Shown here in pieces: positions 5,899-60,442 of a stretch of DNA of 64,000 bases. Each line of letters opens with the position of its first letter. The first letter of the stretch is position 1. Made by a program: the position numbers and the translations under genes. This DNA is from Malus domestica (lineage: Eukaryota; Streptophyta; Magnoliopsida; Rosales; Rosaceae), in the NCBI RefSeq assembly GCF_042453785.1, contig NC_091670.1, positions 36,901,501-36,965,500 of the forward strand. The letters are read 5' to 3'. Under the pieces are notes generated by a model, which was not told where the DNA came from, searched no databases, and saw nothing but the letters and a program-made list of their open reading frames with translations.

Positions 5899-6463
5899 AA
5901 AATTGTTAAAGTTTTTTGAAGTATAAAATTGTTAAATAAAAAGAAAAATAGTGTAATTAACAGCTCAAAAAATTTCGTGAACTTTAAATAAGAATAAATA
6001 ATCATCCTTTCTTCGCATTAATACATATAATTCACAACAGGTTTTTAACTTGCGTCGAAATAGACTGACATTGCGTCGAAATAGGCTTATATTGCGTCGG
6101 ATCAAACCGACGTAATCTGACAGTCTGCGTCGAAATAATCTTAGTTTGCGTCGGTTTAAACCGACGCTAAAATGACATTGCGTCGAAATAAGCTTTCATT
6201 GCGTCGGTTAAAACCGACGCCAAATGAATTAAAAAACCGCGAAAAATGCCGCCCAAAATATTTTAATTAAACCGACGTCGGTTAAAAGCGACAGGAAACA
6301 AGCTAAAAAAAAAAAAAAAAATTATAACCCAATATTAAAAATAAAAGGTTTAACTTATATTTAATACTTAATAAAAAAAAACAGAAATATAATTTTGATA
6401 ATAAGATATCATAACATACGAAATGAAAGATAAGATAATTAATACATAAAATAATTAACATAT
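5899..6463 (-). repeat. CACTA element, left subterminal region with GTCG palindromes
   Basis: From about 6047 to 6290 the motif TGCGTCGAAATA alternates with near-palindromes such as GCGTCGGTTTAAACCGACGC. Short repeated motifs of this kind are the usual transposase-binding subterminal repeats of CACTA elements, and the right end (11750-12100) has related ones. A terminal CACTA..TAGTG sequence is not visible on this side. CACAACAGGTTTTT near 6034 could be a decayed end, but it does not match the right terminus well. The 5899-6030 stretch is AT-rich, with a short direct repeat of GTATAAAATTGTTAAA next to the satellite. Confidence 0.6.
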
Positions 6464-21349: not shown

Positions 21350-22195
21350 AAATAACTCGCGCGTCCTTACCACTTTGCCCCCTGCCTCCCTGCCATTAGA
21401 GCAGTTCCAGCCTTGTAAATAGGCCGGGGGACAGGGGAGAAGAAAAGGCCCGAGGGCCTGTCAAGTTGCTCCAGCCATGAAGAACCCGAGCTCGTGGAGA
21501 AGGCCCGAGCAGGGGGCCTGTCAATTTGTGACAGCCCCGGAGCCCGAGCTCCAAGCCCATTTTTTATTTTTTTCTGTCAGGCGCGTGCACCCCACTCGCG
21601 CGTGGGGGCGCGTCGCACGACAGCTTTTCAGAAAAGCAGACGACTTTTCAGAATGTCACAGTTACCGTTGGGAAGCCATGTGGCTTCCCACGATCTGTTC
21701 GATCTCAACAGCTCCTTCATTTGGACCGTTGGATCTCAACGGTAAAAAAAATAAAAAAAATCTTATTTAATATCAACCGTTCGATCTGAGATCAACGGTC
21801 GATATTAATATGCTTTATAAATAAAGAAAAAATAGTTTTAAAATTAAGAAAAGTTACCGTTGTGACACGTGGCACAATCTGGAGTGTTGGAATTCAATTT
21901 TTTTTAAATCCAACGGCATAAATTAATTATTTGAAAAAAAAATTAAAAAAAAATGGAAAAAATCCGAAAAAATTGTAAAAAATCTGAAAAAAAAATTTGT
22001 AAAAAATTGTTTTTACTTTTCTATAAATACGACTTCTTCTCCATCTACCTTACACCACAATTTCATATTTTCTCAACTACTTTCAATCAAATTCTTATAT
22101 TTCTCTCAAAGTTTCAATCCAATTTTTGTTCCACAAGTTAAAATCTGATCAAAATCTATCGTCAAAGATTCTCAAAAGATAACGACACGTGGCAC

Positions 22196-24813
22196 TGACA
22201 CACCCCGTCCCGAAGGAGGGCATGCTGGCCGTCACGTGAGAGTGACGTAACCATTTGCACAGTACGGAAGCTTTAAGATACAATTTATAAGTTGATACAC
22301 CCGAAGGTGAGTCCTAATTTTGTCCAATCTGTCAGAACCCCGCTGTATTCCTCGTAGTCACCACACCTTTGTGATTCCTGAACCTGGAGGGGCGCAAAAC
22401 CAAAATTCAGTGGGTCAGTAAAACAATTATTTTCCAAATCCAAACATTTTTCAAAACGTTGTAACCCCTCTCTGTAAAACCTGTATATTTTCCCAGAAAT
22501 GTAAAATATAAATATACATATATATTCTCAATACTTTAATTCATTAACTCAACATTTTTTCTTTATCAATCATGCCATGCCATGTCTAATTCAACAGTTA
22601 AGTATGGATGCATCAACAATAATCATATCAGGTGCAAGAAAGTAATCAACCGGAGGCCCTCTAATAGCCCTGTACGGTTGAACCTAGAGCTCAAAATCTA
22701 TCACTATCACTCTACCGGAGTCACCTCTGTGACCCGTCCGGCCTTCTGCACACAAGTTACGCTCTAGTGCTTCTCATAAATCATCTGTGCACATAATCTA
22801 AGGTCACCCACCAGTCGGAATCTCACTAACACTCTCGCGACTGGCCTGTCGTACCCACTCCGCGTGGACTGTACGACTAGCATCTACTTGGATCCAAGGC
22901 GAGCGTGCGATGCGGTGAATACTATAAGCACTAAACCATGGTGCAGGATTTGAGCTCAATATATATCATCATCATCATAACAGTAATTAAATACTCACCT
23001 GTGCGTCCACCGCACCATTTCATACATATGCATCATAAATCAATTCTTACCTGTGCGTCCACCGCACCAATTCATACATATGCATCATAAATCAATTCTT
23101 ACATGTGCGTCCACCGCACCAATTCATACATATGCATCATATATTAATTCATGCATGGCATTTCAACTCACATTTCTATATACTTTTCATATACTTTTAT
23201 GCATTTTCATTTAAAGCATAATTTCATGCATTTTCAATTTCTGGGAAACGTCAAGTATATATATATATATACGGAAAACAAAACTGCCCACTCACCTGGA
23301 GTTCGCCCTACAACTCCCTAGCACAATACGCCAAGGCGTCATGACGATCGGCGCCTAAAACAATAATCAATTCCAACCTCAGAATTCATATCGATAGAAT
23401 ATATAACTTATATAAAATACGTCACTACGTAGATTGATCCGGAAGATCCACCACTCAGATTTTAATCCATAACTTCCAGAGGTCCACATTATACCTCTAG
23501 GACAACATCCTAAAATTTCATTACCATCCAACGGTCGGATCTCCGTCAATTTCCAAAACTAAGTGACGGTTAACATTTTATATTATGGACTTACAATTCC
23601 AATTCCGGAAGATCCGTAACTCGGATTCCCAATCCGTAAGTTCCAATAATCCTCAAATATTACGTATTACAACGTATCAAAGTTTGGTGACGATCCAACG
23701 GTCGGATCGTCAATTCACATTTTCACCTAAATGTGAAAATTATAAAACGTTATTTGAACACCTAACCAACAATCCTCAATAACTTTCTCATACGGTGTTC
23801 AATTTAGGTATATGAATATACCATAGTGATCTACTCGACGTCACGGACGTCGACATATTTTTAAAATAATTTTATTTTTATTTTTTATTTTTACTGTAGC
23901 ACCTTCTTCTTCCTTGGGTCGCCGGACTGGTTTTTCCGGCGGCCGTTTTCTGGGCAGTTTTTCAAATTGCCATAACTTTGTCATTTCTCAACGAAATCAA
24001 GTGATTCAAAAACGAAAGTTGTAGCCCTTGAAGAGACAAAGAGAATGGTACCTTGCACAACACCTAGTTAGCCGTTGTTTGGCCGGAAACTGCCTCGAAA
24101 GCCTCGGAGGTCGCCGGAAACTGGGTATTTTTCAAATGAGTATAACTTCTTCAATACTCAACGAAATTGAGTGAAACAAAAATGAAAGTTGTAGTACTTG
24201 ACGAGACGAAGAGATTGATACCTACCTCGACTCCTAACTCGCCGGGGATTCGCCGGAAAACGCCTCGAAAGCTCCGGCCAAACTTTGAACTTGTCGATCT
24301 CCGTGTTCTTACGTCCAAAAACTTCCAACGAAGCACTCCGAGCTTCCTTGGGACATCCTAAAGCTCACTATGAGCTTGGTTTGGCCTAAAACACAACCAA
24401 TTCAAAGCTCATGAACAGTACACATTCACGGCAACTTTAGAAACTAGGGTTTTCGAAGTGAAACTTACTTGAAATGGGTATCATCGTGATCGTATGGTCT
24501 TCAGGAGTACGATGGCACTCTTAAATCCGTCGTTGGTGGAAGTTTAGGGTGTTTTTGTGGTGGTCTTGGTGGTTGCCGTGTGTTCGAGAGGGTGAGAGAG
24601 AGAGATCTGAAATGGAAGAAGAAGAGAGAAAAGGAAAGGTTACGGAAAATGGGGAGGAAATTAGGGTATAGGACCCTACCTAAAGTCCAACACAACAATA
24701 GCTTAGAAATTTTAGGTAAAACAAACACCAAAATTACGCACCTTAATCCCGTTTAAGGGCGTTTTTGTAATTTCACGTCCTCGGAATTAAAAATTCCGGG
24801 ACGGGCTGTGACA
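22196..24813 (-). repeat. 3' LTR (2,618 bp) of the gypsy-derived element
   Basis: Direct repeat of 28837-31454. It includes three short units around CTGTGCGTCCACCGCACC at about 23000-23120 and a (TA)n tract near 23258. The small ORFs inside are non-coding duplicates present in both LTRs. Confidence 0.95.
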
Positions 24814-27800
24814 ATCTCCCCTCCTTATAGAATTTCGTCCCCGAAATTCCAGCCACCAACCAAACTCTCAATACTAAAAAAATAGCCTCGGATACATATC
24901 TCTCATCCGTTCTTTTGTCTCCCAAGTAGCTTCTTCTGCTGAATGGTTCATCCACAATACTTTTACCAAGCTCACGATCTTATTCCTCAGAGTCTTATCT
25001 TTCCAATCCAGTATAGTCACTGGTTCCTCATCAAGTCGAATCCGGATTAATCTCCAAAGGTTGAACCAGAATCTTATGCGACAAATCTGCCACCTAGTGA
25101 CAACGCATCGAACACAAAATACATTATGTGCCTTAGCCAATTCTGAAGGCATCACAAACTTGTATGCAACTTCATCGATTCCTTTAGTGATCAAAACGAT
25201 CTGATGTGTCTAAGACTTATCTTGTCTTCCTTTCCAAATCTTGCTATTTCTTTTCATGGTGAAATTTCCAAAAATATCAAACCATTTACCTTACACACTC
25301 GATTAGTGGCATATCCATCTGTTGATCTCTTTTGCCATTCATGGTTACTTCAGGTTAACTTAATCACCTTAATACTTTGAGGAGACTCATCCATAGTCTC
25401 AGGGTCTACTAAAACTCTTTCTTGATCGAATCTTTCTCTACCCAGAAACGTTCCATTCACAAGTCATCAAAAACCGACTCACATGACACATTTCATGGTC
25501 CTTATGGCGTTACTTCGGAAACTGCACAACCAACATACTTAAGAAACTTAGCAGTTCCGTAATCTAATTCTCTTTTCCATAAAACAAATAAGTAGTGTTG
25601 CACTGTCTGGGAAAGGTTGTTACTCAACACTGGAGTAAATGTACTAACTTGTTACTTAACAAGTATAACTTCTTCTCGATCTTCCATTCTTAATTTTTCT
25701 TCCGTTGGTTTTCAATCCACAAGATGATACTCTTGGCAACGTGCCAGATATTAATCTTACTGTAGTCTTCTCACCAAGTGCTTCAACTAGAACAAACTTT
25801 ACGATCACCCTGATCGTACAATCATGTTCATTAAGCAATACAATTCACTTTCGCTGCCTCATATCAAAATCCTTCCAAGTAATGGATATTGAAGACTTTT
25901 TGGATTCGTAAAAAAAATCTTGCATTCCTACTAAAATATAATGTCTCCATAACTTCACAGCAAGAATGGTAATCGTGACTTCCAAATCACCAGTAGGGTA
26001 ATTCATCTTATGAGATTCCATTCATCGTGGAACGTATGCAATCACCCTAACATTTGCATCAACATGCCTCCAATACCATTCAAGAAACATCACTAAAAAT
26101 TTATGATTACCACTATTCTCTGGGAATACCAAAATACGTGCATGAGTGAGGAAATACTTCAGTTGTTGAATCCTTTGCTCACAATTTCCTTCCCACTCAT
26201 ACATGACCTCTTTTCTCAACAGTCTCGTCAATGACAAAGCAATGACTGAAAAATCTTTCACAACCATCCAAGATAGCCTGGTAAGCTAAGAAATTCCAAA
26301 TCTCAATTACGACTCGTGGTTGTTCCAAATTCTCAATTTCTGCTATCTTTTAAGGATTCACTTGAATACCTTAAGAATATATAACAAATCTCAGAATGCC
26401 ACCTGATTCATCTAACTTTAGCATTTGCTACTTAGCATACAACCGACATTCTTCCAATCTTTGTTCCACCGACTTAATACGTTTACATGCTCTGCTCTGG
26501 CTCAGAATATGCCAGAATATCTTCAATGAAAATGATATCTATTTATCAAGGCATTATTGGAATACTTCATCCAATAACTCATAAAATAGCATGAGTATCC
26601 ATATAGCATCACCAAACTTCATAAAGACTATAACGAGTCCAGAAAACCATCTTATGATCAACGTCACTTATAATATTCAATTGGTAGTAACCAGATCTCA
26701 ATTCAATCTTTGAATCTTCGCAATTACTTCTGAGCTGGTTAAATAAACATCAGTACATTACCATGGATAACGGTTCTTAATCGTTACCCGACTCCATTGT
26801 CTATAATCAATGAACAATCTCTAAGTCCATTTTCTTTCTCACCAACAAACTGGTGCTCCTCAAAAGTGTTGTACTAGGTTGAATGAAACTTTTATCAACC
26901 AATTCTTTCAACTGAATTTCCAATTCCCTTAACTCATCCTGAACCAATCTTTAACATAGATTTATACCTGGCAACAATTCAATAGTGAACCTCATATCTC
27001 TGCCCGAAGGCAATCCAGGTATACTTTCAGGGAAGACATCAAGAAAGTCTAACCCCTTTTGACATTATTCACACTACTCCAAACAACATCATTTAGCACC
27101 ACATGAGCTAATATTTTTGACAGCCTTTCAAAAACAATCTCTTTGCTCTCACAGCGTAAATAACGGCCTGACTCAATCCACTTTGCATACTTACAAAAGT
27201 AATCTCTGGTCATCCAGATCGATGGAAAGTGACTGGTTTCCCGTAACAATCCATTTAGTCACAATTATAACCAACCAATCTAATGGAAATAATTTAACCG
27301 ACACAATATATATTCTATTATTATTAAGCATTCTAAATAAGTACAATACTAACATAAAATAATCTACCAGGTTGCTTGCTTAACGAATCCACGAATGAGT
27401 TATTAATATTACGGTCTGCAGCCCGCAATACTGATAAATCATCGTTGTCTCGATAAGTAGGCAACCACTCTCAAAGATATAACATTACTATTTTGTTACT
27501 CAATGCAAAATACATACACTCGTCTCAACTACATTTATTTACTACTTTCTAGGTAATAACATACATAATAAGAAATATATCAGCCGAAGTCAACTAGAAT
27601 GACCAATACGGTTGATTCAACTCTTATCTTAATAATACGTCGGCCGGATCCACTTCGCGTGGTCGGTACGGCCGAGCCTATAACTCACTAATTTCTCATG
27701 GTCTGTACAGCTGAACATATAACTCATCAAATCTCTCTGTACTCACGGTCAATCCGACCAAACTACTAAGTCCATAACTCTGCTGAATCGACACTATGAT

Positions 27801-28836
27801 ATCATGGAAAATTATTGAGTACAACTGATTCTAGGGACGATTCACAATTCTGTGTCCCCTCTGTTCACATAAACACATTCATTAATTTCACACTTCCCAA
27901 AGTGTTAATTTTTGTACCTGCTGCACAAAGTACATTTCCTTTACTCGAGACACCTTGTCTCAAATATCTGGGATTACCAGTATATCCATCACTTTTACTC
28001 TGACCAGCGACATTAAAACCTCAACTGGAAAAATTAACTCTAGCTTCACTTCTTTTGAAGCTCTGAGTCTTTCGATATTCTTGATATGACGAATCATTAA
28101 CTTTATCGTTCTTTCATCTAATTCCCATTCTTTTCTTATTCATCTTTACTCTCGCTGATCATATTCTCAGAGTCCTCAAGGCTCAACAACATCTCATATA
28201 CTCCTGGTAAGAAATACCATGGATAGGGGTCACCCAAAAATACCACTTCCTTTTGTCACCCAGCCTAAAACAACATAACACCTCCACCAAATTCACAACA
28301 ATATCTGGATGGAACGAGGCAAGTCTGAAAACTTTCTATAATATCCCTCGATCATCACCTTCCTTGTCTCATATTTGTAAACTCTTGTTTACTACCATCA
28401 ATAAATGCCAGAGGGATAAACTTTTCCTTAAACAATTTTAAATCGGTTGTTCCTCCGATGACAACAAATCATACTCCTGTTTCCACCAGGATACAAATTC
28501 ATACCCAAAACCAGGTAGTCGTCTCGACCCCCTGTCAGAAGGAAGATTCCTTTGACTTGCATAATCTGAAACATCTTTTCCAAATGGTTAAACCGTTACT
28601 TCGCTCCCTCAGGTTCATCATTTCATAAGGTGATTCAAATTCGACTCATAACCCGTCTTAAAATGTCCCTTTTTATAATAGACTGAATCACCATAATAAT
28701 AGTTTTCCCTAAACCACTATATTAGGGAGACTAAATTCCTCTAACTAAGTGGCTTGCTACAAGACAGTGTAGTTCTGACAGAATTCACTAGAACTTCTCA
28801 AAATGTCCAAGATTGCAACCATGCTCTGATACCAAC
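24814..28836 (-). pseudogene. Degenerate gypsy pol remnants (RT, RNase H, integrase C-terminus)
   Basis: The order on the minus strand fits pol. RT-like remnants lie about 27060-26600 (frame broken many times; FPESIPGLPSGR-like start). The RT/RNase H join is at 26267-26022 (FSVIALSLTRLLRK, YFLTHARILVFPENSGNH). The integrase C-terminal/chromo-like tail is at 25194-24874 (PVTILDWKDKTLRNK, VKVLWMNHSAEEATWE). Stops and frameshifts are throughout. The part nearest the primer site (28836-27300) should be gag, but nothing recognisable remains. The decay is much greater than that of the flanking LTRs. Confidence 0.85.
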
Positions 28837-31454
28837 TGACACACCCCGTCCCGAAGGAGGGCATGCTGGCCGTCACGTGAGAGTGACGTAACCATTTGCA
28901 CAGTACGGAAGCTTTAAGATACAATTTATAAGTTGATACACCCGAAGGTGAGTCCTAATTTTGTCCAATCTGTCAGAACCCCGCTGTATTCCTCGTAGTC
29001 ACCACACCTTTGTGATTCCTGAACCTGGAGGGGCGCAAAACCAAAATTCAGTGGGTCAGTAAAACAATTCTTTTCCAAATCCAAACATTTTTCAAAACGT
29101 TGTAACCCCTCTCTGTAAAACCTGTATATTTTCCCAGAAATGTAAAATATAAATATACATATATATTCTCAATACTTTAATTCATTAACTCAACATTTTT
29201 TCTTTATCAATCATGCCATGCCATGTCTAATTCAACAGTTAAGTATGGATGCATCAACAATAATCATATCAGGTGCAAGAAAGTAATCAACCGGAGGCCC
29301 TCTAATAGCCCTGTACGGTTGAACCTAGAGCTCAAAATCTATCACTATCACTCTACCGGAGTCACCTCTGTGACCCGTCCGGCCTTCTGCACACAAGTTA
29401 CGCTCTAGTGCTTCTCATAAATCATCTGTGCACATAATCTAAGGTCACCCACCAGTCGGAATCTCACTAACACTCTCGCGACTGGCCTGTCGTACCCACT
29501 CCGCGTGGACTGTACGACTAGCATCTACTTGGATCCAAGGCGAGCGTGCGATGCGGTGAATACTATAAGCACTAAACCATGGTGCAGGATTTGAGCTCAA
29601 TATATATCATCATCATCATAACAGTAATTAAATACTCACCTGTGCGTCCACCGCACCATTTCATACATATGCATCATAAATCAATTCTTACCTGTGCGTC
29701 CACCGCACCAATTCATACATATGCATCATAAATCAATTCTTACATGTGCGTCCACCGCACCAATTCATACATATGCATCATATATTAATTCATGCATGGC
29801 ATTTCAACTCACATTTCTATATACTTTTCATATACTTTTATGCATTTTCATTTAAAGCATAATTTCATGCATTTTCAATTTCTGGGAAACGTCAAGTATA
29901 TATATATATATACGGAAAACAAAACTGCCCACTCACCTGGAGTTCGCCCTACAACTCCCTAGCACAATACGCCAAGGCGTCATGACGATCGGCGCCTAAA
30001 ACAATAATCAATTCCAACCTCAGAATTCATATCGATAGAATATATAACTTATATAAAATACGTCACTACGTAGATTGATCCGGAAGATCCACCACTCAGA
30101 TTTTAATCCATAACTTCCAGAGGTCCACATTATACCTCTAGGACAACATCCTAAAATTTCATTACCATCCAACGGTCGGATCTCCGTCAATTTCCAAAAC
30201 TAAGTGACGGTTAACATTTTATATTATGGACTTACAATTCCAATTCCGGAAGATCCGTAACTCGGATTCCCAATCCGTAAGTTCCAATAATCCTCAAATA
30301 TTACGTATTACAACGTATCAAAGTTTGGTGACGATCCAACGGTCGGATCGTCAATTCACATTTTCACCTAAATGTGAAAATTATAAAACGTTATTTGAAC
30401 ACCTAACCAACAATCCTCAATAACTTTCTCATACGGTGTTCAATTTAGGTATATGAATATACCATAGTGATCTACTCGACGTCACGGACGTCGACATATT
30501 TTTAAAATAATTTTATTTTTATTTTTTATTTTTACTGTAGCACCTTCTTCTTCCTTGGGTCGCCGGACTGGTTTTTCCGGCGGCCGTTTTCTGGGCAGTT
30601 TTTCAAATTGCCATAACTTTGTCATTTCTCAACGAAATCAAGTGATTCAAAAACGAAAGTTGTAGCCCTTGAAGAGACAAAGAGAATGGTACCTTGCACA
30701 ACACCTATTTAGCCGTGGTTTGGCCGGAAACTGCCTCGAAAGCCTCGGAGGTCGCCGGAAACTGGGTATTTTTCAAATGAGTATAACTTCTTCAATACTC
30801 AACGAAATTGAGTGAAACAAAAATGAAAGTTGTAGTACTTGACGAGACGAAGAGATTGATACCTACCTCGACTCCTAACTCGCCGGGGATTCGCCGGAAA
30901 ACGCCTCGAAAGCTCCGGCCAAACTTTGAACTTGTCGATCTCCGTGTTCTTACGTCCAAAAACTTCCAACGAAGCACTCCGAGCTTCCTTGGGACATCCT
31001 AAAGCTCACTATGAGCTTGGTTTGGCCTAAAACACAACCAATTCAAAGCTCATGAACAGTACACATTCACGGCAACTTTAGAAACTAGGGTTTTCGAAGT
31101 GAAACTTACTTGAAATGGGTATCATCGTGATCGTATGGTCTTCAGGAGTACGATGACACTCTTAAATCCGTCGTTGGTGGAAGTTTAGGGTGTTTTTGTG
31201 GTGGTCTTGGTGGTTGCCGTGTGTTCGAGAGGGTGAGAGAGAGAGATCTGAAATGGAAGAAGAAGAGAGAAAAGGAAAGGTTACGGAAAATGGGGAGGAA
31301 ATTAGGGTATAGGACCCTACCTAAAGTCCAACACAACAATAGCTTAGAAATTTTAGGTAAAACAAACACCAAAATTACGCACCTTAATCCCGTTTAAGGG
31401 CGTTTTTGTAATTTCACGTCCTCGGAATTAAAAATTCCGGGACGGGCTGTGACA
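28837..31454 (-). repeat. 5' LTR (2,618 bp) of the gypsy-derived element
   Basis: Near-identical to 22196-24813. Differences seen: one A/C near 29068, two close together near 30707-30716 and one G/A near 31156. Confidence 0.95.
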
Positions 31455-39200: not shown

Positions 39201-42200
39201 AGGCATAATTTACTGAACAATTATGGAGGGCAATTGAGAGAGGAAGAGAGTGTGGCAAAAACCCAAGGTGGGAGAAAAACCCATAGACTAAGGAGAAAAA
39301 TGAGAAGTTGCATTAAGTCAAAACTATACTTCTTTTGGATGTAAGTAGAAGAGCTCACAAGGGTATGATCAGCCCAGGATGGGTGTCTCGTTAAAACCTA
39401 GTTAGGTAGCGAAAACCCAGTAGGAAAAAATGCTCCTAATCCTAGGGAAAAAAAGTACATTAAGATAAAGTGAGTATACTTCTGGATACTCCCCTTGAGT
39501 TTGACATAACTTCCAAATGAGAACTACAAGCATTGCATATGAATAGTTAGGCATACCAATTCCTCGAACAAGCTTCTGCAATGTTGACTTCGGCAGTGAC
39601 CTCGTGTAGAGGTCGGCAAGGTTGTTTGGGATTGGGTTGCATGACTTTAATCTCCTGATGCTTTGTTGATGTAGATATGGACGCAATATGTCTTGGCGTT
39701 GACTTCGTAGATGTATCATGGCTTGGTCGGGTTAATACATGCGGCATAATCTTCATGGATCGTCGTCGGGACTCAACGATGGATGAAAACACAGCAAGTA
39801 CTTCAAAATATGCTCAACAAGAACTTCTAACCATGTCTCACTTGTGGCGTAGTGAAGTGAGGTGAGTCTTGGAACGATTCGAAGGTTTCGCAACTAAGGT
39901 CATATTATGGACCTCCAAGATATTATGATATCCTTAATGGTAAAGACATAACCATTTGGGGATTTTGCCTTGTGCGGGTTTGATAAGTAACTAGCGTCAG
40001 CATAACAAACAAGGCAAGCATCATTTCATGGATCAGGGGGTTGGATTCGCTCGAGATGCATCGGGATTTGATTTGCCTAAATTCGTAGTACCTTTAGGGT
40101 ACGTCTTTAATACCAATTCAGTGGTTGCGTGTAGGCGCGGTACTGCATCTTTACCAATATATCAACAATGAAGGAGATGTCCTGTCTAAATACAATGAGC
40201 TAAGTACAATAAAGCGCAAAGTTAAACTTAGATATGGAATTTCAGATTCCATAACCTCTTCAAAGGGTCTCATTTGTATATAACCTATGGACGATCAAAG
40301 GTATACTCAAAGGTGACACCTTCGGAGTGTAGTTCGACTGGTAGACCAAGGTACCGCCAAAACAACGCTTGAACTTCGGGTCAAGGCATAAACGAGTTTT
40401 CCTAAGATCATTCATCTCAAATTCCATCTTCAAGTGCGAGGCAGTTTTCTCAAGCTCTTCCGGAGTCTTAGTGAGATGTATGTCAACGACATAAACTGTA
40501 ACTCTAGCAATTTGGAATAAGACTTCATAGTTTAACACGCAATGACATAATTCATATCCCTGACTGATTAAATAATCACTTAGACGGGTATACCACATTC
40601 GTCTGATTGTAAGTGAACACCTCAAACAAGTTAAGAATGTGTTCCATGGTTTGGAACTATTTGAACCAGTCCATGTAATTTTTCAGAAACTTACATGTAA
40701 ATCTCCGTATCAATATCCCTATGGAGAAAACATTAACCACATTTCATAATACTGCTATCAATCACAAGACGTTTGAGAGAAACCTTGCGTTATAAGGCGT
40801 GCATCATATCGCACTATTTCATTCATCTCATAACGCTTCCTTTTTCACTTGTAACATAACAAGGTTACCTTGGGCAGTGTAGGAACGACAGGTCCAATAC
40901 ACACTTTGGTAAGGAATTTGACTTGGATTGTAACTTCAGTTGTCCAATCAGTTATACGTTATCACTTAATCAATGGAACACGGTTCGATATCGTCACTTT
41001 TCATTTATGTTGGTAGCTACCATATAACTGAAAACATCATCGATGGTAATCTCATTTCAATTCCATTTAGCTCACCCAAACTAGTATATTGAACCAAGAA
41101 CTTCATGTCTCGAGAGTAATCCAGATTAATCACATAAGATGAAAATGATTTTAAACAACTATCAAGTTTAGATTCATTGTTGTGTCGTGTCTTTCTCTTC
41201 TAGGGAAGTGAATCTTACGAACTAAGTGATCTGTCGTGCTCTAAGCCAAGACAGATTGATTGGTTATCCACCGGTGTACTGGATCGTCCAACAGGGACGT
41301 CCAAACCGTCCAATAGGGATGACACACCCTTCGAGGATGTTGACTTGACGTCCGTTAAGTATGTCTATCCTTGCATGCATGTTTGCAGCTAGTATATGAT
41401 CTTGTCACTTTAGCTAGATCAGATGAATGCATATGGAGCAACATTCTGAAAGCTAGAATTTCATCGCACTTATTTATTATACATGTGCGGTACGGGAATT
41501 AAGATGAGACATAGTGGGTAACGTCCACGCAAATTCGTGCAGATCTATAGGAAAGTTGACATTCTTATCTCCCCCTAACAGCGAGAAGACTGTTTCATTA
41601 AAGTGACAACTCGCAAATAAACGGTAAAGAGATCGCATGCAAGGGTTCTAAGATAGCTAATGTGAAGGAGAATCATGATCGATAAAGATTCACATCCTTT
41701 TTTGAGGATCCATGTTGGTATGTTGTGGCAATGCGACTTAGCACATGGAATGCACACTCAAATGGGTAAATACGAAAATCGTCAGGTTCATACCCAGTAA
41801 CCAACTGTAATGTCAAGTAGGTTGGGTGGCAACATAGTTTCGTACAAGATTGCATAGCCCTAGGCAAAAATAAAAAACTTGGTACGTTCACCAAAATCCG
41901 GGCGATCATTTAAATTTGCGCTTTATGATCACTAGGCGAGGCTATTTGAGGTGAACATGAGAATTCGATGTTCAATTATAAACCCAAAATACATGCAATA
42001 CTTTATCGAAAACTGTCGATATAAACTCTCTGGCATTATCCAGTCTCTCAGACCTTAAAGGATAAGTAGGGTGGTGAGCCCTTAATCGGCCATGAAGTTT
42101 ACCAGCAATGTGTGTAGACAAACATACGACCAGTTTATCGATTGATCAACCAAAACCATAAGTATTTATATGGTCCGCATTTTGATTGGATTAGTCCACA

Positions 42201-43620: not shown

Positions 43621-43790
43621 GAGACGTTTTCGGAGGACGAGCGCAGCTAAACGAGACTTGGGGGTTACGACCCAACTATGTACCTGTGAGTAACCTTTTG
43701 GTTTTATAAATATACGTATATATATGTTCTACGTTTTCCAGAAACTATTTAAAATGGAATTTCGTTAAAATGCCATGTCATATTTGCTTA
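43620..43790 (+). repeat. Left part of a truncated gypsy-type LTR, interrupted by the 43791-47783 element
   Basis: The sequence GGGGTTACGACCCAACTATG ... GTCATATTTGCTTA continues at 47784 (GCTTACATATTAGC) once the inserted element is removed. The right part ends GGTCGGGGTGTGTCACA near 48797. No coding sequence. Confidence 0.6.
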
Positions 43791-44164
43791 TGTTTGTACC
43801 ATATTTAAGGTCTCCGTATTTATACCTCGTATAAATACTTGGGGAATTCAAATGTAATTATGTAATAAATGAAGGGGCAAATATGTAATAAGTGAGGAGC
43901 CCTTATTCTATAAAATGACTCCTTACTCTCCTCATTAGGGGAGGTCAAGGCTTAGGCCATGAGAAGAGAGAAAATAGGCTAGAGAGCACACTGCCTCTAG
44001 CTTTCTTGTATATTCATCATTCAGAGTGAAACAATATCAACATCAATGTGGACGTAGCCCAAACATTGGGGTGAACCACGATACATCTTGTGTTCTTTAC
44101 TTTCTTTCAGATTCACGGTCGGGTTTACGTTAGTCTAAGACCCATTCGGTTTTGTGCATCAACA
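43791..44164 (+). repeat. 5' LTR (374 bp) of the gene-carrying element
   Basis: Contains the TATA-like TTATTCTATAAAATGACTCC at about 43903-43922 and an internal CAACATCA..GGACGTAGCCC stretch. It matches 47410-47783 over its whole length. Confidence 0.92.
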
Positions 44165-44184
44165 TTTGGCGCCGTCTGTGGGAA
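44165..44184 (+). other. Primer binding site of the gene-carrying LTR element
   Basis: TTTGGCGCCGTCTGTGGGAA directly after the LTR. TGGCGCC starts are characteristic of tRNA primer sites in plant LTR elements. Confidence 0.8.
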
Positions 44185-44269
44185 ACGACACGAAAAGCTA
44201 TATTGGTTCTCTTTCATTTTTTTTACCTCCGTCGTGGATCTGCAAAATCCGCACAGAGACACAGACACA

Positions 44270-44800
44270 TATATCTCTCTATCTGAAACTTCCAATTTAT
44301 AGAGCTGTTTCATCTTCCACTGTTTCCATCTCCCAAAATCTCTCTTCCATCGACACACTTCGTCTAAAAAATTCTCTCTCTTGCGTTACTAGTCAAAGCA
44401 AAACCCTAGTAAGCATGGTCGGACCCTCGCCTGACCTCACCAAGGTCATCAACATCAAGTTACTCTGCAGCTATTGCAGCAAAATCCTCCCCTGTTACCC
44501 CGACAGCAAGCTCCGTTACCTCAACGGGGAAACCCGTGTCCTTGCCGTTCCCCGCTTTATTTCCTTTTCTAAACTGTCTTCCAAGATGACTGAGTTGTAT
44601 GGGCCATCCATAACGGCCTTCAGTCTGCACTGTCAATTGCCCACCGAGGATCTCGACGCCCTCGTATCCATCAAGTCCGATGAGGATCTCGTTAATCTCA
44701 TTGAAGAATACGACAGAGCAGCCTCTTCCTCTAATCTGAAGATCAGAGCCTTCCTCTTACTCATCCCCATTAGCAGGACACCTAAAAGCATTTCATCCCC
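44270..44800 (+). pseudogene. Captured PB1-domain gene fragment (5' leader plus PB1 domain)
   Basis: A leader-like CT-rich stretch precedes ATG 44415. The reading frame then gives a PB1 domain of the plant type: INIKLLCSYCSKILPCYPD, KLRYLNGETRVLAV, LPTEDLDALVSIKSDEDL, NLIEEYDRAASSS. PB1 domains mediate protein-protein pairing in many plant kinases and transport or signalling proteins. After about residue 125 the frame passes without a stop into SCAI-like sequence, so a chimeric ORF exists. No introns are seen. The parent gene is not in this window. Confidence 0.8.
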
Positions 44801-44811
44801 TTCTTCCATTT

Positions 44812-45245
44812 TGGCCTACAGATGCCTCCACAACCAGCACTACTTTCGCAAGGTCTTCAAGGCCTGCATGCGCCTGTGGAAGTACCAACAGGAGAACCGC
44901 TCTAAGCTCGTCGTTGCCGGCTTGAACCGTTGGGAAATCGATGAGATCGCCAGCCGGATCGGCCAGCTCTACTTCGGCTAGTTCATGTGCACCAGCGAGG
45001 CCCGATTCTTTCTCGAGGCCTACGTCTTTTACGAAGCCATTTTCAGCCGCAGCTACTTCGACGGCTTCACCGGTTTCGAAGGTTTCAAGAAGAAGGATAT
45101 CGGAGTCCGCTTCAAGGAGTTGAGATTTTACTCCCGGTTTCTGCTATTTTCCTCGATTTTGAACCAGATTGAGACGGTTCATCTTCTTGCCGAGCTGTTC
45201 AAATCGCTTGTTGATGACTGCAAAGCCAATTTTCAGGAAATATAG
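44812..45245 (+). pseudogene. SCAI: Captured SCAI-like gene fragment
   Basis: The translation resembles plant homologs of SCAI (suppressor of cancer cell invasion, a transcriptional cofactor in animals): YFRKVFKACMRLWKYQQENR, RWEIDEIASRIGQLYFG, then TSEARFFLEAYVFYEAIFSR and LLAELFKSLVDDCKANFQE. A TAG stop at 44979-44981 replaces the expected Gln codon, and the same frame continues to 45245. The homology then ends abruptly, so only the N-terminal third or so is present. It is joined in frame behind the PB1 fragment. Recognition is from memory of the family. Confidence 0.75.
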
Positions 45246-45249
45246 TGTT

Positions 45250-45980
45250 TTTGTGTTCTTGTGCATACTCAGGCCCCAGACTCTCCTCGAACCAAAGCTC
45301 CACTCAATTTCACCATGTGAGGCAGGACAAGCAATAATTCAGAGAACTCAGTGACCCATCCCCTACATCTAGGGTGGTAACCATGTAAAATCATTTTCTG
45401 AGAAATCAAAAGTAGAAAGCAAAAGTAGAAAGCCAATAAGCTGTAAATGCAAGTGTGGGAGATCATTGCAAGCATCCAATGTAGTCTCCTCAAATTCCTT
45501 GGGCATCGACCACCAGTAAAGCCAAAGAAGAAAGCAAAAGTAGAAAGCAAAAGAAGAAAAAAATAGATCAGGAAAAAAATAAGAAAGCCGAGATATGTTT
45601 TTCAAACAAAGAGTCAAGTTGGTATACTTGATGATGGCTTTTGTCAACACAGAGAGACCATACTTGCTGACCAAACCTGCTTCCCCGTGAAGTTTTCCTC
45701 CAACAGCTGGACCACTGAGGTTGATGTGAAGGGAGAAATCTCGCTGTTGCCAAGTCCCAGCAGTTTTTTTTTCTTCTTCTTTTGAATGATGTGATTTACT
45801 TTTCTTATCTTTTGGAGACATCTGTATAACCTCACAAGAGGGTAATCATAAAAAAAATAAATAAATAAAAAGTCTGCAAGCCCATAATAGTGGGCTGGAA
45901 TGTAATAGCGAAGGTCCATATGCCTAAAAGAACCAAGCCCTATAGCTTCAAACTCCAACCTCCATCCCTCACTTAAGGTT
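45250..45980. other. Interior of the LTR element, unidentified reverse-strand ORF
   Basis: A 150-codon minus-strand ORF (45821-45369) starts MSPKDKKSKSHHSKEEEKK with two hydrophobic parts further on. I do not recognise it. It could be a third captured fragment or chance. Confidence 0.3.
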
Positions 45981-45983
45981 CAC

Positions 45984-46580
45984 CATCTATTATCACCAAC
46001 TAGGTGATCAAAAGTACGTCCAGTACTCCAAAATTATTCGGTAGCATGCCGCTATTATCACCAACTAGGTGATCAAAAATACGTCCAGTTCTCCAAAATT
46101 ATTCGGCAGTCCAAAATTATTCGGCAGCTTGCCGCTATTATCACCAACCAGGTGATCAAAAGTACGTCCAGTACTCCAAAATTATTCGGCAGTCTGCCGC
46201 TATTATCACCAACTAGGTGATCAAAAGTACGTCCAGTACTCTAAAATTATATATGAGCATCACTCATGTCAATCATACATAAACATTCATAAGCATCACT
46301 CATGTCAATCAACATAAACATTCATGAGCATCACTCATGTCAATCATACATAAACATTCATGAGCATCACTCATGTCAATCAACATAAACATTCATGAGC
46401 ATCACTCATGTCAATCAGCTTCGAAAGCTTCATTTACAAGAGCTCCAGCTTTGAAAGCTTAATTTACAAAGCTCCGACTTCAAAGCTTCATTTACAAAAG
46501 CTCTAGCTTCAAAGCTTCACTTTCAAAGCCTCACCTATAAAACTTCACTTTCAAAGCTTCACATACAAAGCTTCAGTGCA
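45984..46580. repeat. Three families of short tandem repeats inside the LTR element
   Basis: Four imperfect copies of a roughly 65-bp unit (ATTATCACCAACTAGGTGAT ... CCAAAATTATTCGG) occupy 45984-46250. Five copies of a roughly 34-bp unit (CATGAGCATCACTCATGTCA) occupy 46250-46415. AAAGCTTCA/CTTTACAA motifs repeat to 46580. Non-coding. Confidence 0.85.
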
Positions 46581-46739
46581 TGGTATACAAAGACCGTCTC
46601 CGAACAACTGCAACTTCGGCCCATACATGGATTGAATTTGAAGTCTCCAGCCAACATACCCTATTGACTGAAGACTTGAGGGACTACACTATGTACAATA
46701 TATTGGGTTTCCGCAACTGGGCCTTATGAAAAATACTTG

Positions 46740-47190
46740 GGGGACTTAGCCCATTATTTATGTACTGAGGAGCGAACCTTTATTCTATAAAAATGACTCA
46801 TTCACTTTCATTAGAGAGCACCCATTAATCATATATTGAGGAGCAAACCCTTATTTTATAAAATGAACTCATTCTCATTCACCTTCATTAGAGAGAGACT
46901 TTTAGCCCATCACTTATGTATTGATGAGCGAACCCTTATTCTATAAAAGGGACTCCCTCATCTTCATTAGAGAGCATTGCCGCCAGCTGAACAACCACCC
47001 CGTCGCGAGCATCACTCCTAACCCATCACTTATGTATTGATGAGCGATCCCTTATTCTATAAAATGGACTCTTTCACCATCATTAGAGAGCATCGCCGTC
47101 TGCTGAGCAACCGCCTCGCCGCGAACATCAACTTTAGCCCATCATTTATGTATTAAGGAGTGAGCCATTATTCTAAAAGGGACCCCCTCA
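46740..47190 (+). repeat. Internal repeats mimicking the LTR promoter segment
   Basis: Five degenerate units contain TTATGTATTGAGGAGCGAAC, CCTTATTCTATAAAA and TTCATTAGAGAG at roughly 65-125 bp spacing. The same order of motifs (GAGGAGCCCTTATTCTATAA ... CTCATTA) is the TATA region of this element's LTR. A second LTR-like junction (GACTGAAGACTTGAGGGACT) is at about 46665. Confidence 0.7.
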
Positions 47191-47409
47191 CCTTCAACAC
47201 CACAGGCTGAGCCAACCAAGGCAACATAAGCCACAAGCCGAGCAGCCTCGCAACATGTGCTACTTCTAGTTGAGCATCATTTCACATTGAGCACCGCCTT
47301 ATATTGAGTATTCAATTCTAGACGACATCTAGTTACTTCGGCCCACACATGAACTGAATTTCAAGTCTCCAGCCAAAAGACTTTCTTGACTGAAGACTTG
47401 GGGGACTAC

Positions 47410-47783
47410 TGTTTGTACCATATTTAGGGCCTCCATATTTAGACCTCGTATAAATACTCGGGGGACTCAAATGTAATTATGTAATAAATGAAGGGGTAAA
47501 TATGTAATTAGTGAGGAGCCCTTATTCTATAAAAGGACTCCTCACTCTTCTCATTAAGGGATGTCAAGGCTTAGGTCATGAGAAGAGAGAAAATAGGCTA
47601 GAGAGCATACTGCTTCTAGCCTTCTTGTATATTCACCATTCAGAGTGAAACAATATCAACATCAGTGTGAACGTAACCCAAATATTGGGGCGAACCACGA
47701 TACATCTTGTGTTCTTTACTTTCTTTTAGATTCACGGTCGGGTTTACGTTGGTCCAAGACCCTTCCAGTTTTGTGCATCAACG
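47410..47783 (+). repeat. 3' LTR (374 bp) of the gene-carrying element
   Basis: Second copy of 43791-44164, followed by the GCTTA duplication. The terminal base is G instead of A. Confidence 0.92.
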
Positions 47784-48797
47784 GCTTACATATTAGCATA
47801 TGCTTAAGTATAGCTTTACATAATATTGTATGATGTTGCAGAGGCCTAGGTAAGTTTAGGTGAGTACTTATTGATGGTATGGTTGCATAGTAGTTGGTTA
47901 TGAGTTGATGCACTTAGAGATTTATGTCCTGCACCCTGGTGTTAGTGCTCCACTCGAGGCCTAGCCTTCACGTGATCGTTCACCTCTCGCACCACATGCT
48001 CACTTTAGATCCAATGCATGTGCTAGCCCGTCATACATACCACATTAGGTGATTCCGACTCGTAGGTGACTTGCGATATTTCGCACAGCCTTCACATGAT
48101 CGTAGCACTTTAACATATTTATTTATACCTAGACTGTCGTACAGACCACATTAGGTAGTTCCGACTCGTGTGCATGATTCGATTGTTGAGCTATAGACTC
48201 AACCGTACAGGTCACGTTAGGTGACTACGGCTATAAGGTCATTTTATATTGATTCATTTTACCTGACTTACTTATTTCATTGCTAAGATACTTGACATGG
48301 CATATGCTTTGTTTTCACTACTCTTGAGTAGGATTTCTATATGCATACGTATTATTATTTTCTAGGAAAATTATTTGGATTTTACGGTGAGGGTTATATG
48401 TTTTGAAAGTGAAATGGTTTTGAAAAGTTTTATTTTTGCCTACTCACATTTTCTGTTTTGTGCCCCTCTAGGTTCTAGTTAGAAGTTCATGTTGGTGGCT
48501 CACAAGGACTATACAGCGGTTCTGACAGATATCTATCAATGTAGGGTTTTCTTTCATATCCTGTACAATTAGTATTTAGCCCGTTGGATTGCACTTTGGT
48601 ACCTACGCTCTGATTATGTATATCTACACTCTAATACTTCCACTCATATTTATATACTTACCTAGTGTAGAGTAGCTAGTTCGGTTTTTATTTACCCACA
48701 TTATCTTATCACCTTTACTTCCGCACAACGCACATGGCTACGACACCCTCACATGACGTCCATCATGCCTTGATTTAGGTCGGGGTGTGTCACATAT
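47784..48797 (+). repeat. Right part of the truncated gypsy-type LTR
   Basis: This continues 43620-43790. It has ACCACATTAGGTGATTCCGA-type repeats at about 48040, 48150 and 48205 and ends GGTCGGGGTGTGTCACA. The reverse complement, TGTGACACACCCCGACC, resembles the LTR start of the 22196 element, suggesting a related family. Confidence 0.55.
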
Positions 48798-49950
48798 CTA
48801 TTAGGATTTACACAATCACATTCCTAATCTAATAGGACTGCAACACTCCCCATTGAGTGTGTAAATACTCAAGTAAATGGCGCATCAGGTCTTCAGTGAT
48901 GAAGTAAGTACAGTTGATGAAGTTGTCGGCACAATGAGTGAATGCGAGTCTCAAATCAATGGAAGAATGCATAAAAAGTAAAACTCACAAAACTTCGCTA
49001 TGGTAAAACCCAAGGTGGGAGAAAAACTCATAGACTAAAGAGAAAAGTGAGAAGTTGCATTAAGTCAAAACTATACATCTTTTGGACGCAAGTAGAATAG
49101 CTCACAAGGGTATGATCAGCCTAGGATGGGTGTCTCATTAAAACCTAGTTAGGTAGCAAAAACCTATTGGGAAAAATGCTTCTAATCGTAAGGAAAAAGA
49201 GTTCATTAAGATCAAGTGAGTATACTTCTGGATACTCCTCTTGAGTTTGACATAACTTCCAAATGAGAACTACAAGCATTGCATATGAATAGTTAGGCAT
49301 ACCAATTCCTCGGACAAGCTTTTGGAAGGTTAACTTCGGCAGTGACATCATGTAGAGGTCGACAAGGTTGTCTGGGATCGGTTTGCATGACTTCAATCTC
49401 CTGATGCTTTGCTAATGTAGATGTGGATGCAATATGTCTTGGTGTTGACTTCGTTGATGTATCATGGCTTGGTCAAGTTGATACATGCGGCATAATCTTC
49501 ATGGATTGTCATTGGGACTCAACGATGAATGAAAACACAGCAAGTACTTCAAATATGCTCAACAAGAACTCATAACCATGTCTCACTTGTGGCGTAGTGA
49601 AGTAAGGTGAGTCTTGGAACAATTCGAAGATTTCGCAACTAAGGTCATATCATGGACCTCCAAGATATTGCGATATCCCTAACGGTAAAGACATAACCAT
49701 TTTGGGATTTTACCTTGTGCGGGTTTGATAAGTAACTTGCATCAGCATAACAAACAAGGCAAACATCATTTTGAGGATTAGGGGGGTTGGATCTGTTGAG
49801 ATGCATTGGGATTTGCCCTCGTAGTACCTTCAAGGTACGTCTTTAATACCAATTCAGTGGTTGCGTGTAGGCGCGATGCTATATATTTACCAAGATCAAC
49901 AGTGAAGAAGATGTCTTGTCTAAATACAATGAGCTAAGTACAATGGAGCC
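48798..49950 (-). pseudogene. Second Ty1/copia 3' remnant
   Basis: This parallels 39250-40200. RNase H pieces are at 49833-49645 (CYADASYLSNPHKVKSQNG) and 49396-49145 (LVDLYMMSLPKLTFQKLVRG), with the same LTR-like sequence at 48990-49240. It is cut at 49950 by an LTR. Confidence 0.75.
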
Positions 49951-50351
49951 TGTTTGTACCATATTTAGGGCCTCCATATTTAGACCTCGTATAAATACTC
50001 GGGGGACTCAAATGTAATTATGTAATAAATGAAGGGGCAAATATGTAATAAGTGAGGAGCCCTTATTCTATAAAATGATTCCTCACTCTCCTCATTAAGA
50101 GAGGTCAAGGTTTAGGCCATGGGAAGAGAGAAAACATCTTAGAGAGGGCAAACACAGAAAATAAGCTAGAGAGCACATTGCCTCTAGCCTTCTTGTATAT
50201 TCACCATTCAGAGTGAAACAATATCAACATCAGTGTGGACGTAGCCCAAACATTGGGGTGAACCATGATACATCTTGTGTTCTTTACTTTCTTGCAGATT
50301 CACGGTCGGATTTATGTTGTTCCAAGACCCCTCTGGTTTTGTTCATTAACA
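49951..50351 (+). repeat. Isolated LTR of the 43791 family
   Basis: It starts TGTTTGTACCATATTTAGG and ends TTTGTTCATTAACA, like the 374-bp LTRs, with about 27 extra bp near 50125-50165. No primer site or polypurine tract adjoins it, and the flanks GAGCC and AATTC do not match. It is therefore a solo or recombined LTR. Confidence 0.75.
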
Positions 50352-58097: not shown

Positions 58098-60442
58098 TGT
58101 TGTGCCTTGGTCCGTTCATCAGTGCGGAAACGAGATTCAGATTACAACCTCACCAAAATCACACTCAGTTGAACAGAATAAAATACAAGAAATAAAGACA
58201 CCGAGAAATTTACGAGGTTCGGCAAAAATCCTGCCTACGTCCCCGGAGAGATATTGCTCTTCACTATGAGAATAACAGTACAAGTACACATGAGTTAAAT
58301 CAACATAACCCAATCCCAAATCCCTTGCACACCCACTCATAGAATTTTCCCAAGAGCCTCACTCTATCCCAAGAGTTCTTTCACTAGAATACTTTTCACT
58401 CTAGCTCTCTTGATTTTTCTCTCACCCATGCCCATGCTTTCCCATGGGAGAGCCGAATGCTCTCCCCCTTTAGATGCTCTCTGATGCCTTCTCAGGAGAG
58501 AGCCGAATGCTCTCTCTCTCCTTTCTCCACTTCGGCTCCTTGCAATTAAATGGACAGAAAAGTGAGTCAACTTCTCCTTTTTTTCATAGACACAATGATG
58601 ATCCATCATGCTCCCTTTTCTCAAAACCCAAAACCACTTTCGGCATGCAAATGGGAAATGAATAAAAAATGCCAAAACAAAGGAATCCCATGAAACATCA
58701 TCATTGTCTTCCACTATTAGCCAAAATGAGATATGGACATATTTGGCCACTATTCTGAAAGCATAACACACAAAGTCACTTAATTGTTAACAGCTCAAAA
58801 TATGAGCCAATCACAACAATCTCCACCTTGGCGAATATACTGTGCAAAAAATCCTTGCACCCAGCATACACACACTAAATAAACCTCGTTGGTCCTGTTC
58901 CGATTCAGTCACTGCCAATGCATGTGCAGCTGCTGCAAGCTAAAAATCACAATTTAGCTTCAGACAGGATCTCGACACATCCTCGTCTCCTCCAATAGGT
59001 TTTCCTCCTCTTCATTGTCTGCAACCTGGAAACTCGTCAGCGCGCCCGTTTCCAGCAACAACCCATCGAGCCAGACAAAATTCCCACACTTCCTCCTACC
59101 TCAGGACCATCTGATCACCTGTGAATCCTATAGCTCCACCTGCTGCAAAACCCCTGCAACACTTGAGACTAAACATCACCAGGAGAAGTGTTGCTTTTGA
59201 GTACCTAGAGGACATACTCGAAGTCTTCCACCACAAACTTGCTACAACTCGGTCTAGCACCTGTAGCACTGTGGACCCTTGCCTCCGGAACCGGATCTGA
59301 ACCTGCTGTCTCTCTCAGATCCTCTTTCCAATTTTCTTCCACGATTCCAACCTTTAATAACTTAAGCAGTCTTGTGCCCACCATTATCCATGGTCTCCTT
59401 TGTGTATCATTCCACACCAAAGAAGCTTGCACCTGCTCCAAACTTACTGTAACTTTCCATGCAGTAAAGTTTCACAAGGTTCTAAGACAAATCTGAAAGT
59501 GAGGTAAGAAGAAAGAGGCCTTTGTCTTCTTCCTCAACATCAACTTTCGTAGTTGATCTAAGCATCCCTGAACACGGCTTCCATTTCTTCAGGCTTCCAT
59601 TACTCTCCATTACCAAGAGTAAAATCGCCTCTCCCTTTAAACTGCTCAACTGAAAATTCCATGGTGAACAACAAATCTGGACCTCCAACGAACCAAGCTT
59701 CCAACGATGCTCTGATACCAATTGTTGTGCCTTGGTCCGTTCATCAGTGCGGAAACGAGATTCAGATTACAACCTCACCAAAATCACACTCAGTTGAACA
59801 GAATAAAATACAAGAAATAAAGACACCGAGAAATTTACGAGGTTCGGCAAAAATCCTGCCTACGTCCCCGGAGAGATATTGCTCTTCACTATGAGAATAA
59901 CAGTACAAGTACACATGAGTTAAATCAACATAACCCAATCCCAAATCCCTTGCACACCCACTCATAGAATTTTCCCAAGAGCCTCACTCTACCCCAAGAG
60001 TTCTTTCACTAGAATACTTTTCACTCTAGCTCTCTTGATTTTTCTCTCACCCATGCCCATGCTTTCACATGGGAGAGCCGAATGCTCTCCCCCTTTAGAT
60101 GCTCTCTGATGCCTTCTCAGGAGAGAGCCGAATGCTCTCTCTCTCCTTTCTCCACTTCGGCTCCTTGCAATTAAATGGACAGAAAAGTGAGTCAACTTCT
60201 CCTTTTTTTCATAGACACAATGATGATCCATCATGCTCCCTTTTCTCAAAACCCAAAACCACTTTCGGCATGCAAATGGGAAATGAATAAAAATTGCCAA
60301 AACAAAGGAATCCCATGAAACATCATATTGTCTTCCACTATTAGCCAAAATGAGATATGGACATATTTGGCCACTATTCCGAAAGCATAACACACAAAGT
60401 CACTTAATTGTTAACAGCTCAAAATATGAGCCAATCACAACA
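58098..60442 (-). mobile_element. Non-autonomous LTR element inserted in the decarboxylase paralog
   Basis: LTRs 58098-58818 (721 bp) and 59723-60442 (720 bp) begin TGTTGTGCCTTGGTCC and end CCAATCACAACA. The duplication CACAC is at 58093-58097 and 60443-60447. Orientation is minus: on the minus strand, ATTGGTATCAGAGCATCG (initiator-methionine primer site) adjoins the right LTR and AAGGTGGAGAT (polypurine) adjoins the left one. By eye the LTRs differ by about four substitutions and a small indel. The interior is only about 0.9 kb with no recognisable gag or pol, so the element depended on another's enzymes. Confidence 0.95.
58819..59722 (-). other. Interior of the non-autonomous LTR element
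   Basis: Two minus-strand ORFs of about 79 codons (59721-59482 and 59441-59205) contain phrases such as LKKWKPCSGMLRSTTKV, possibly gag-derived. I cannot assign them. They overlap no known domain visible here. Confidence 0.4.

What the first reader, a model, noticed from the sequence alone, without database searches (positions are those of the whole stretch)
43791..47783. LTR retrotransposon that has captured and fused two host genes (PB1-domain and SCAI-like)
Seen: complete LTR pair, GCTTA target duplication, primer site, and no gag/pol. Inside, a plus-strand PB1-domain fragment with its own leader-like sequence runs in one frame into a SCAI N-terminal fragment, interrupted only by one TAG. 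Known: LTR elements can package and template-switch onto cellular mRNA. Inferred: intronless joined pieces suggest capture of spliced transcripts, giving a mobile chimeric gene family.
Basis: partly seen in the sequence, partly recalled or inferred. Interest (0 to 1): 0.78.

Follow-up and report, generated by a model that had tools for sequence, protein, structure and literature searches.

The report
Retrotransposon family carrying spliced host genes
This stretch is one copy of a mobile element whose sampled relatives in the same plant genome mostly carry other intron-free pieces of ordinary plant genes, some of them stitched together, so the family looks like a natural generator of chimeric gene copies.

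Summary
Window 43791-47783 is an LTR element with paired LTRs, PBS, PPT and GCTTA duplication, and no gag/pol domain in the ORFs scanned. It fuses a PB1-domain gene (one parent intron missing) to part of SCAI exon 1. Two other LTR elements with their own target duplications carry the same PB1-SCAI join, so the chimera moved.

The larger result is the family. Its leader core occurs at 1,291 places (control 0). In 32 leader-bearing 5' ends read, the shared ~90-nt leader gives way to other sequence. Of 8 elements chosen without regard to cargo, 7 gave a host Pfam family above cutoff (triosephosphate isomerase, 14-3-3, FKBP and others); of 19 chosen by LTR similarity, 10 did. In those 19, 114 sense ORFs gave 14 host families, 113 antisense ORFs none. 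Nine parent introns were recognised in four elements; all nine are missing.

Best explanation: repeated template switching between element RNA and packaged spliced mRNAs, enzymes supplied in trans. Gene capture by LTR elements is well known; a family of this size with mostly different, sometimes multi-gene cargo was not listed in ten paper searches. No RNA or particle data were available.

The parts
43786..43790 (.). left target-site duplication GCTTA
43791..44164 (+). 5' LTR (TGTTTGTACC...CATCAACA)
44165..44184 (+). primer-binding site TTTGGCGCCGTCTGTGGGAA
   Evidence: LTR end plus this PBS has 4,627 genome matches with up to 3 mismatches, control 0, including another, gag-bearing family
44165..44250 (+). 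family leader; other sequence begins at or shortly after its end
   Evidence: 24 elements aligned; 1,291 genome matches to its core with up to 3 mismatches, control 0
44251..44384 (+). second leader-like piece, shared with L016 and L018, its first part with L037; origin unidentified, possibly another gene's 5' UTR
44385..44812 (+). PB1-domain gene fragment: part of the 5' UTR, ATG at 44415, PB1 domain; one parent intron missing near 44569-44572
   Evidence: parent L014 (C16:7.02 Mb) 94% and 91% identical on the two sides
44808..44813 (+). PB1/SCAI join with CGGC microhomology between the parents
   Evidence: same join in L011 and L012
44813..45241 (+). SCAI exon 1 fragment in frame with PB1; TAG at 44979-44981; stops within a few bases of the inferred parent exon 1 end
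   Evidence: parent L009 (C15:32.6 Mb) 90%
45242..45651 (+). unassigned interior; 45414-45651 shared with at least three other places, 45275-45417 with one and in part with two more
45652..47387 (+). family 3' domain with tandem repeats at 45987-46250, 46253-46417 and 46742-47178; its first ~110 bases are present in only part of the copies compared
47388..47409 (+). polypurine tract region GACTGAAGACTTGGGGGACTAC
47410..47783 (+). 3' LTR
47784..47788 (.). right target-site duplication GCTTA
49951..50351 (+). single LTR of the same family, no clean TSD

Best explanation
The element belongs to a non-autonomous LTR-retrotransposon family built as LTR, PBS, ~90-nt leader, host cDNA cargo, tandem-repeat 3' domain, PPT, LTR. 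Inferred mechanism: its RNA is packaged together with spliced cellular mRNAs by proteins supplied in trans. During minus-strand synthesis the reverse transcriptase copies the 3' domain, jumps into one or more mRNAs, and returns to the element leader next to the PBS. The product keeps both LTRs, integrates with a 5-bp duplication, is transcribed again and can recombine again. In the window copy this gave leader, PB1, SCAI. Shown: anatomy, TSDs, missing introns, predominantly sense cargo, fixed leader, shared and reshuffled joins, gag/RT elements with the same PBS. Inferred: packaging, jump order, helper identity.
For: (1) Nine parent introns recognised in four elements searched against the genome, all missing: PB1 one, L030 syntaxin two with splice sites inspected, L033 exportin-like three, L057 triosephosphate isomerase three. 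(2) 14 host Pfam families in 114 sense ORFs of 19 elements against none in 113 antisense ORFs, whose two hits were retroelement domains. (3) 24 aligned elements share the leader and diverge at or shortly after its end; 8 more read by eye. (4) Same PB1-SCAI join in L011 (TSD ATATC) and L012 (TSD CCCTT); leader-PB1 join shared with L016 (TSD AAGTT) and L018, which continue into other sequence, in L016 a carbon-nitrogen hydrolase (23.6 bits, cutoff 23.2), in place of SCAI. (5) Of 11 exact LTR-end/PBS sites taken about every tenth along C1, 4 carry this leader (3 by script, L051 by eye) and each gave a host family above cutoff: TPP_enzyme_N, RING, TIM, ADH_zinc_N; 7 carry, by eye, another leader and a gag-type ORF, one followed to Retrotrans_gag and RVT_1. 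Of 4 sites from the leader list, 3 gave FKBP_C, Ribosomal_L10, 14-3-3. (6) CGGC microhomology at the join.
Against: SCAI has no intron within the captured piece. An intronless PB1 paralog exists (L015), less similar than L014. Orientation is not strict: in L057 two short pieces (query 290-335 and 253-347) match places on the strand opposite to their neighbours. Cargo is not always unique: L029 and L039 share 331 bp, L057 has three relatives over 675-777 bp, and groups share leader extensions. Nine of the 19 LTR-chosen elements and L065 gave no Pfam family above cutoff. The interiors were read for ~1.5 kb only, so gag/pol further on is not excluded in the 19. The window PB1 piece starts well downstream of its parent's TATA-like box. 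The gag/RT group shares the PBS and LTR end, but in the one copy compared only ~47 bp of LTR at 81%. No RNA or particle data.
Confidence: 0.85

Rival explanations
1. Ordinary retrocopies (LINE-made processed pseudogenes) landed one after another inside LTR elements.
For: Retrocopies are also intronless; an intronless PB1 paralog exists outside the family (L015); the two short opposite-strand pieces in L057 could be separate insertions.
Against: Other sequence starts at or shortly after the same leader point in 24 of 24 aligned elements; host families only in sense ORFs; by eye no internal duplications or poly-A at the PB1 and SCAI edges (no systematic search made); the join lies inside coding sequence with microhomology.
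Confidence: 0.04
2. A few old captures that only spread and decayed: known gene transduction as in maize Bs1, not a repeated process.
For: The PB1-SCAI join arose once and is shared by three elements; L057 and L029/L039 also have relatives with the same cargo.
Against: 14 host families each hit one ORF in 19 elements, with others in the unbiased samples.
Confidence: 0.05
3. Read-through transcription from an element into a neighbouring gene, spliced and then retrotransposed (3' transduction).
For: Would also give spliced, sense cargo; described for plant retrotransposons in PMC13317346 (section 4 read).
Against: Cargo lies between the leader and the family 3' domain, not beyond the 3' LTR; matches to pieces of one element lie on different chromosomes.
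Confidence: 0.05

Closest known systems
Maize Bs1 LTR retrotransposon
   Same: LTR element with segments of three host genes inside it (as described in PMC13317346, section 4 read).
   Different: Bs1 is described with one gene set; here most sampled copies have different cargo and the leader core has 1,291 matches.
LTR-captured genes in rice, sorghum, maize and pepper
   Same: Host sequences inside LTR elements, hundreds per genome; about 72% of retroduplicated pepper NLRs lie in elements without gag or pol (PMC3726574 abstract and passages, PMC5664825 passages, PMC2774510 passages).
   Different: In maize 425 intact elements spread over 81 families held gene fragments and, under the conditions employed, none held more than one nuclear gene (PMC2774510 passages); here one family holds many genes and at least some elements fuse two or more.
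TRIM and LARD non-autonomous LTR elements
   Same: PBS, PPT and LTRs kept, no gag/pol found, presumably mobilised in trans (definitions recalled).
   Different: Interior is not one conserved family sequence but mostly a different host cDNA in each sampled copy.
Pack-MULEs and gene-carrying Helitrons
   Same: Transposon families whose copies carry fragments of many host genes (PMC13317346, section 4 read).
   Different: Those are DNA transposons; here the cargo lacks introns, so it passed through spliced RNA.

Membership tests
LTR retrotransposon | paired LTRs, PBS, PPT, short target-site duplication | tested here: met
   window, L011, L012, L016; the 3' LTR of L018 is truncated. For L028-L046 only the 5' part was read
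LTR retrotransposon | own gag and pol | tested here: not met
   no such domain in four window ORFs or in 114 sense ORFs from the first ~1.5 kb of 19 relatives; hence taken as non-autonomous
Retrotransposon-captured retrogene (retroduplication) | parent introns missing in the captured copy | tested here: met
   PB1 in the window; three relatives. SCAI piece has no intron to test
Retrotransposon-captured retrogene (retroduplication) | cargo inside the LTRs and in sense with the element | tested here: met
   exception: two short opposite-strand pieces in L057
Retrotransposon-captured retrogene (retroduplication) | copy is transcribed or functional | not testable with these tools
   no RNA data; in-frame TAG; pairwise dN/dS against parents 0.88 (PB1) and 0.39 (SCAI)
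Bs1-like multi-gene transducing element | fragments of two or more unrelated genes fused in one element | tested here: met
   Pfam above cutoff for both genes: window PB1+SCAI, L033 Sod_Fe_N+Xpo1; by DNA matches to several places also L030 and L057
Helper pair with a gag/pol element | autonomous partner sharing PBS, LTR ends and packaging signals | tested here: inconclusive
   gag/RT elements share the LTR end and PBS, little other LTR similarity in the copy compared; packaging signals not tested
LINE-made processed pseudogene | poly-A tail and own target duplication at the gene copy | tested here: not met
   PB1 and SCAI edges read by eye; A-rich stretches exist elsewhere in the interior; no systematic search

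The most novel reading that the evidence does not exclude
A single plant LTR family, with over a thousand leader-bearing copies, has become a general mRNA-capture and gene-fusion system: most copies carry a different set of spliced host transcripts entered at a fixed point beside the PBS, which would make it an RNA-level counterpart of Pack-MULEs and Helitrons.
Probability: 0.6. Interest if true: 0.85.

Novelty: new variant of a known kind. Interest (0 to 1): 0.72.

Why it matters
Gene capture by LTR elements is already reported in hundreds of cases per genome, but spread over many families; the maize survey read here found no element with more than one gene. One family with a fixed 5' switch region and mostly different spliced cargo per copy would supply many datable template-switch junctions in a single genome. 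That makes open questions testable: which mRNAs are packaged, where reverse transcriptase jumps, how much microhomology it uses, and whether chimeric retrogenes become genes. Practically, such elements can be annotated as host genes and inflate gene families.

Tried and rejected
Considered and rejected: independent retrocopies, a few old captures, 3' transduction (see rivals). A third host gene on the minus strand of the window (ORF 45369-45821) was suspected, but it had no Pfam family and only PDB matches at E 0.5 or worse, and 45652-46000 is shared with most of the 40 family places scored. A PDB search with the PB1-SCAI ORF gave PB1-domain chains at best E 0.016. The gag-bearing element beside L041 was tried as a same-LTR partner, but its LTR end matches over 41 bp only. 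The 413-aa ORF of L049 and one ORF of L050 gave no Pfam family at E 0.001; the gag domain appeared only when the next stretch was fetched.

Not reached: the parent search for the third cargo of L011 did not complete. The search with the window's third piece was answered at the ninth try. L026, which holds two more leader copies, was not examined for cargo. Whether matched places are genes or other elements was checked by sequence only for the syntaxin parent (L047). The species is my inference (651 Mb; paired hits on contigs such as 13/16, 4/12, 5/10, 1/7, which fit recalled apple homoeology).
Full report
What was checked. The window lies at C10:36901501-36965500 of a 651-Mb, 19-contig genome, a plant by its genes and probably apple-like (inference). 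The element at 43791-47783 has two LTRs aligned over 374 sites with 31 differences and no gaps (K2P 0.0895), TSD GCTTA, a PBS and a PPT. At recalled rates of 1.3e-8 or 4e-9 per site per year this divergence means roughly 3 or 11 million years. Its ORFs match PB1 and SCAI in one frame with a single TAG inside the SCAI part.

Parents. The PB1 piece matches a gene on C16 (L014) at 94% and 91% on either side of a ~93-bp intron (GTCAGT...AACAG) that the element lacks; the C13 copy (L017) has an intron at the same place. The SCAI piece matches two genes (L009 90%, L010 86%) without a break and ends within a few bases of the inferred end of exon 1, so splicing cannot be tested there. At the join the parents share CGGC. 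An intronless PB1 paralog (L015) exists but is more distant.

The join is mobile. Of 22 matches to the PB1-SCAI stretch, three extend well into both genes: the window itself, C1:13.87 Mb (L011) and C1:12.78 Mb (L012). Both others are LTR elements with their own TSDs (ATATC, CCCTT), younger LTRs (K2P 0.041, 0.048), different 5' pieces and different sequence after SCAI. Two further LTR elements (L016, TSD AAGTT; L018, 3' LTR truncated) share the leader-PB1 join but then leave PB1 for other sequence, in L016 a carbon-nitrogen hydrolase just above the Pfam cutoff. So cargo is exchanged piecewise.

The family. A search with LTR plus leader had 4,103 first-look candidates, of which 40 were scored and 20 cut out, one being the window. 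The other 19 (L028-L046) share LTR, PBS and ~90-nt leader and diverge at or shortly after it; some share longer leader extensions, and L029 and L039 share 331 bp. I picked 33 ORFs by eye from them: 10 of 19 elements gave a host Pfam family above its cutoff, namely Syntaxin_2, LRRNT_2, Ribosomal_L28e, Sod_Fe_N with Xpo1, Cir_N, CoaE, DUF538, BES1_N, Alfin and an ML domain (three more ORFs without a hit). To remove my choice, all 114 sense ORFs of 58 aa or more in the first ~1.5 kb were scanned: 14 families at E up to 0.001, each in one ORF, none gag or pol; two of them are LRR models and two (MRP-L47, EPF) are weak. The 113 antisense ORFs gave two families, both retroelement domains (gag_pre-integrs, Pol_BBD), and no host family.

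Unbiased samples. The LTR end with PBS has 4,627 matches (up to 3 mismatches, control 0). Eleven exact sites were taken about every tenth through the 100 listed, all on C1. Four carry the cargo-family leader (L054, L057, L058 by script, L051 by eye) and all four gave a host family above cutoff: RING, TIM, ADH_zinc_N, TPP_enzyme_N. Seven begin, by eye, with a different leader and a gag-type ORF; one, followed further, showed Retrotrans_gag and RVT_1. The cargo-family leader core has 1,291 matches (671 + 620, control 0). Four exact sites from that list, one each on C2 to C5, gave FKBP_C, Ribosomal_L10 and 14-3-3, and one without a Pfam family (L065). Thus 7 of 8 elements chosen without regard to cargo carry a recognised host gene; the ORFs sent to Pfam were chosen by eye.

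Introns. Four elements were searched against the genome. Nine parent introns were recognised and all are missing: PB1 one, the L030 syntaxin two, with splice sites inspected, the L033 exportin-like gene three, the L057 triosephosphate isomerase three. For L033 and L057 the introns are read from exon-by-exon matches, without looking at splice sites, and the other pieces were not annotated for introns. L033 matches about four separate groups of places, L030 and L057 several, on different chromosomes; which of these are genes and which other elements was mostly not checked. In L057 two short pieces match places on the strand opposite to their neighbours, so orientation is not strict.

Mechanism. 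The fixed leader, predominantly sense cargo, missing introns, complete LTRs with TSDs and short microhomology fit template switching between element RNA and packaged mRNAs during minus-strand synthesis. The syntaxin cargo starts roughly 30-40 nt after a TATA-like box, close to an expected mRNA 5' end, as copying to the mRNA end and then returning to the leader would give; the window PB1 piece starts further down and is preceded by a second leader-like piece shared with other elements. Gag/RT elements with the same PBS are candidate helpers, but LTR similarity in the copy compared is short. Coding potential is decaying: TAG in the window, other stops in L011 and L012 (read), pairwise dN/dS 0.88 for PB1 and 0.39 for SCAI against single parents; 28 of 42 SCAI differences read C to T or G to A from parent to element.

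Literature. LTR gene capture is established: a 2026 review (PMC13317346, section 4 read), rice and sorghum with 672 and 1,343 captured genes (PMC3726574, abstract and passages), pepper (PMC5664825, passages), maize (PMC2774510, passages), extra ORFs in plant LTR elements, which states that transduced genes usually lie in sense (PMC7264820, passages). Chimeric circles joining an LTR element and a gene are reported in Arabidopsis mutants (PMC10462705, passages). A Rosaceae TE survey holds no word beginning with captur (PMC11197308, term search). Ten searches listed no family like this; most subscription papers are not held, so it may be in print elsewhere.

Verdict. Kind: known (LTR capture of spliced host genes). 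Variant: a large family with mostly different, sometimes multi-gene cargo in the copies sampled.

Noticed in passing
window 263-5904: Tandem array of a ~347-bp unit, copies about 99.7% alike; looks like a satellite.
   Followed up: no
window 22194-31454: LTR pair of 2,620 bp, 99.85% identical, TSD GGCAC: a very young LTR element.
   Followed up: no
window 58098-60442: LTR pair of ~720 bp, 99.3% identical, TSD CACAC, interior under 1 kb: TRIM-like.
   Followed up: no
window 39258-40210 and 49005-49944: 954-bp direct repeat, 90% identical, flanking the element; the second copy abuts a single LTR of the cargo family at 49951-50351.
   Followed up: partly
L015 (C16:20.98 Mb): Intronless PB1-domain paralog with an open frame and no family LTR found nearby: a possible retrogene.
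   Followed up: partly
L049, L060 (C1:56.3-60.5 kb): Gag/RT element with the same PBS and LTR end and a 928-aa open frame in the stretch read: candidate helper, described only.
   Followed up: partly
L057 (C1:19.1 Mb) and C1:26898497, C13:22128468, C16:39981376: Four places share ~675-777 bp of the same multi-piece cargo at 81-91%, another chimera that seems to have multiplied; L057 also holds two short opposite-strand pieces.
   Followed up: no
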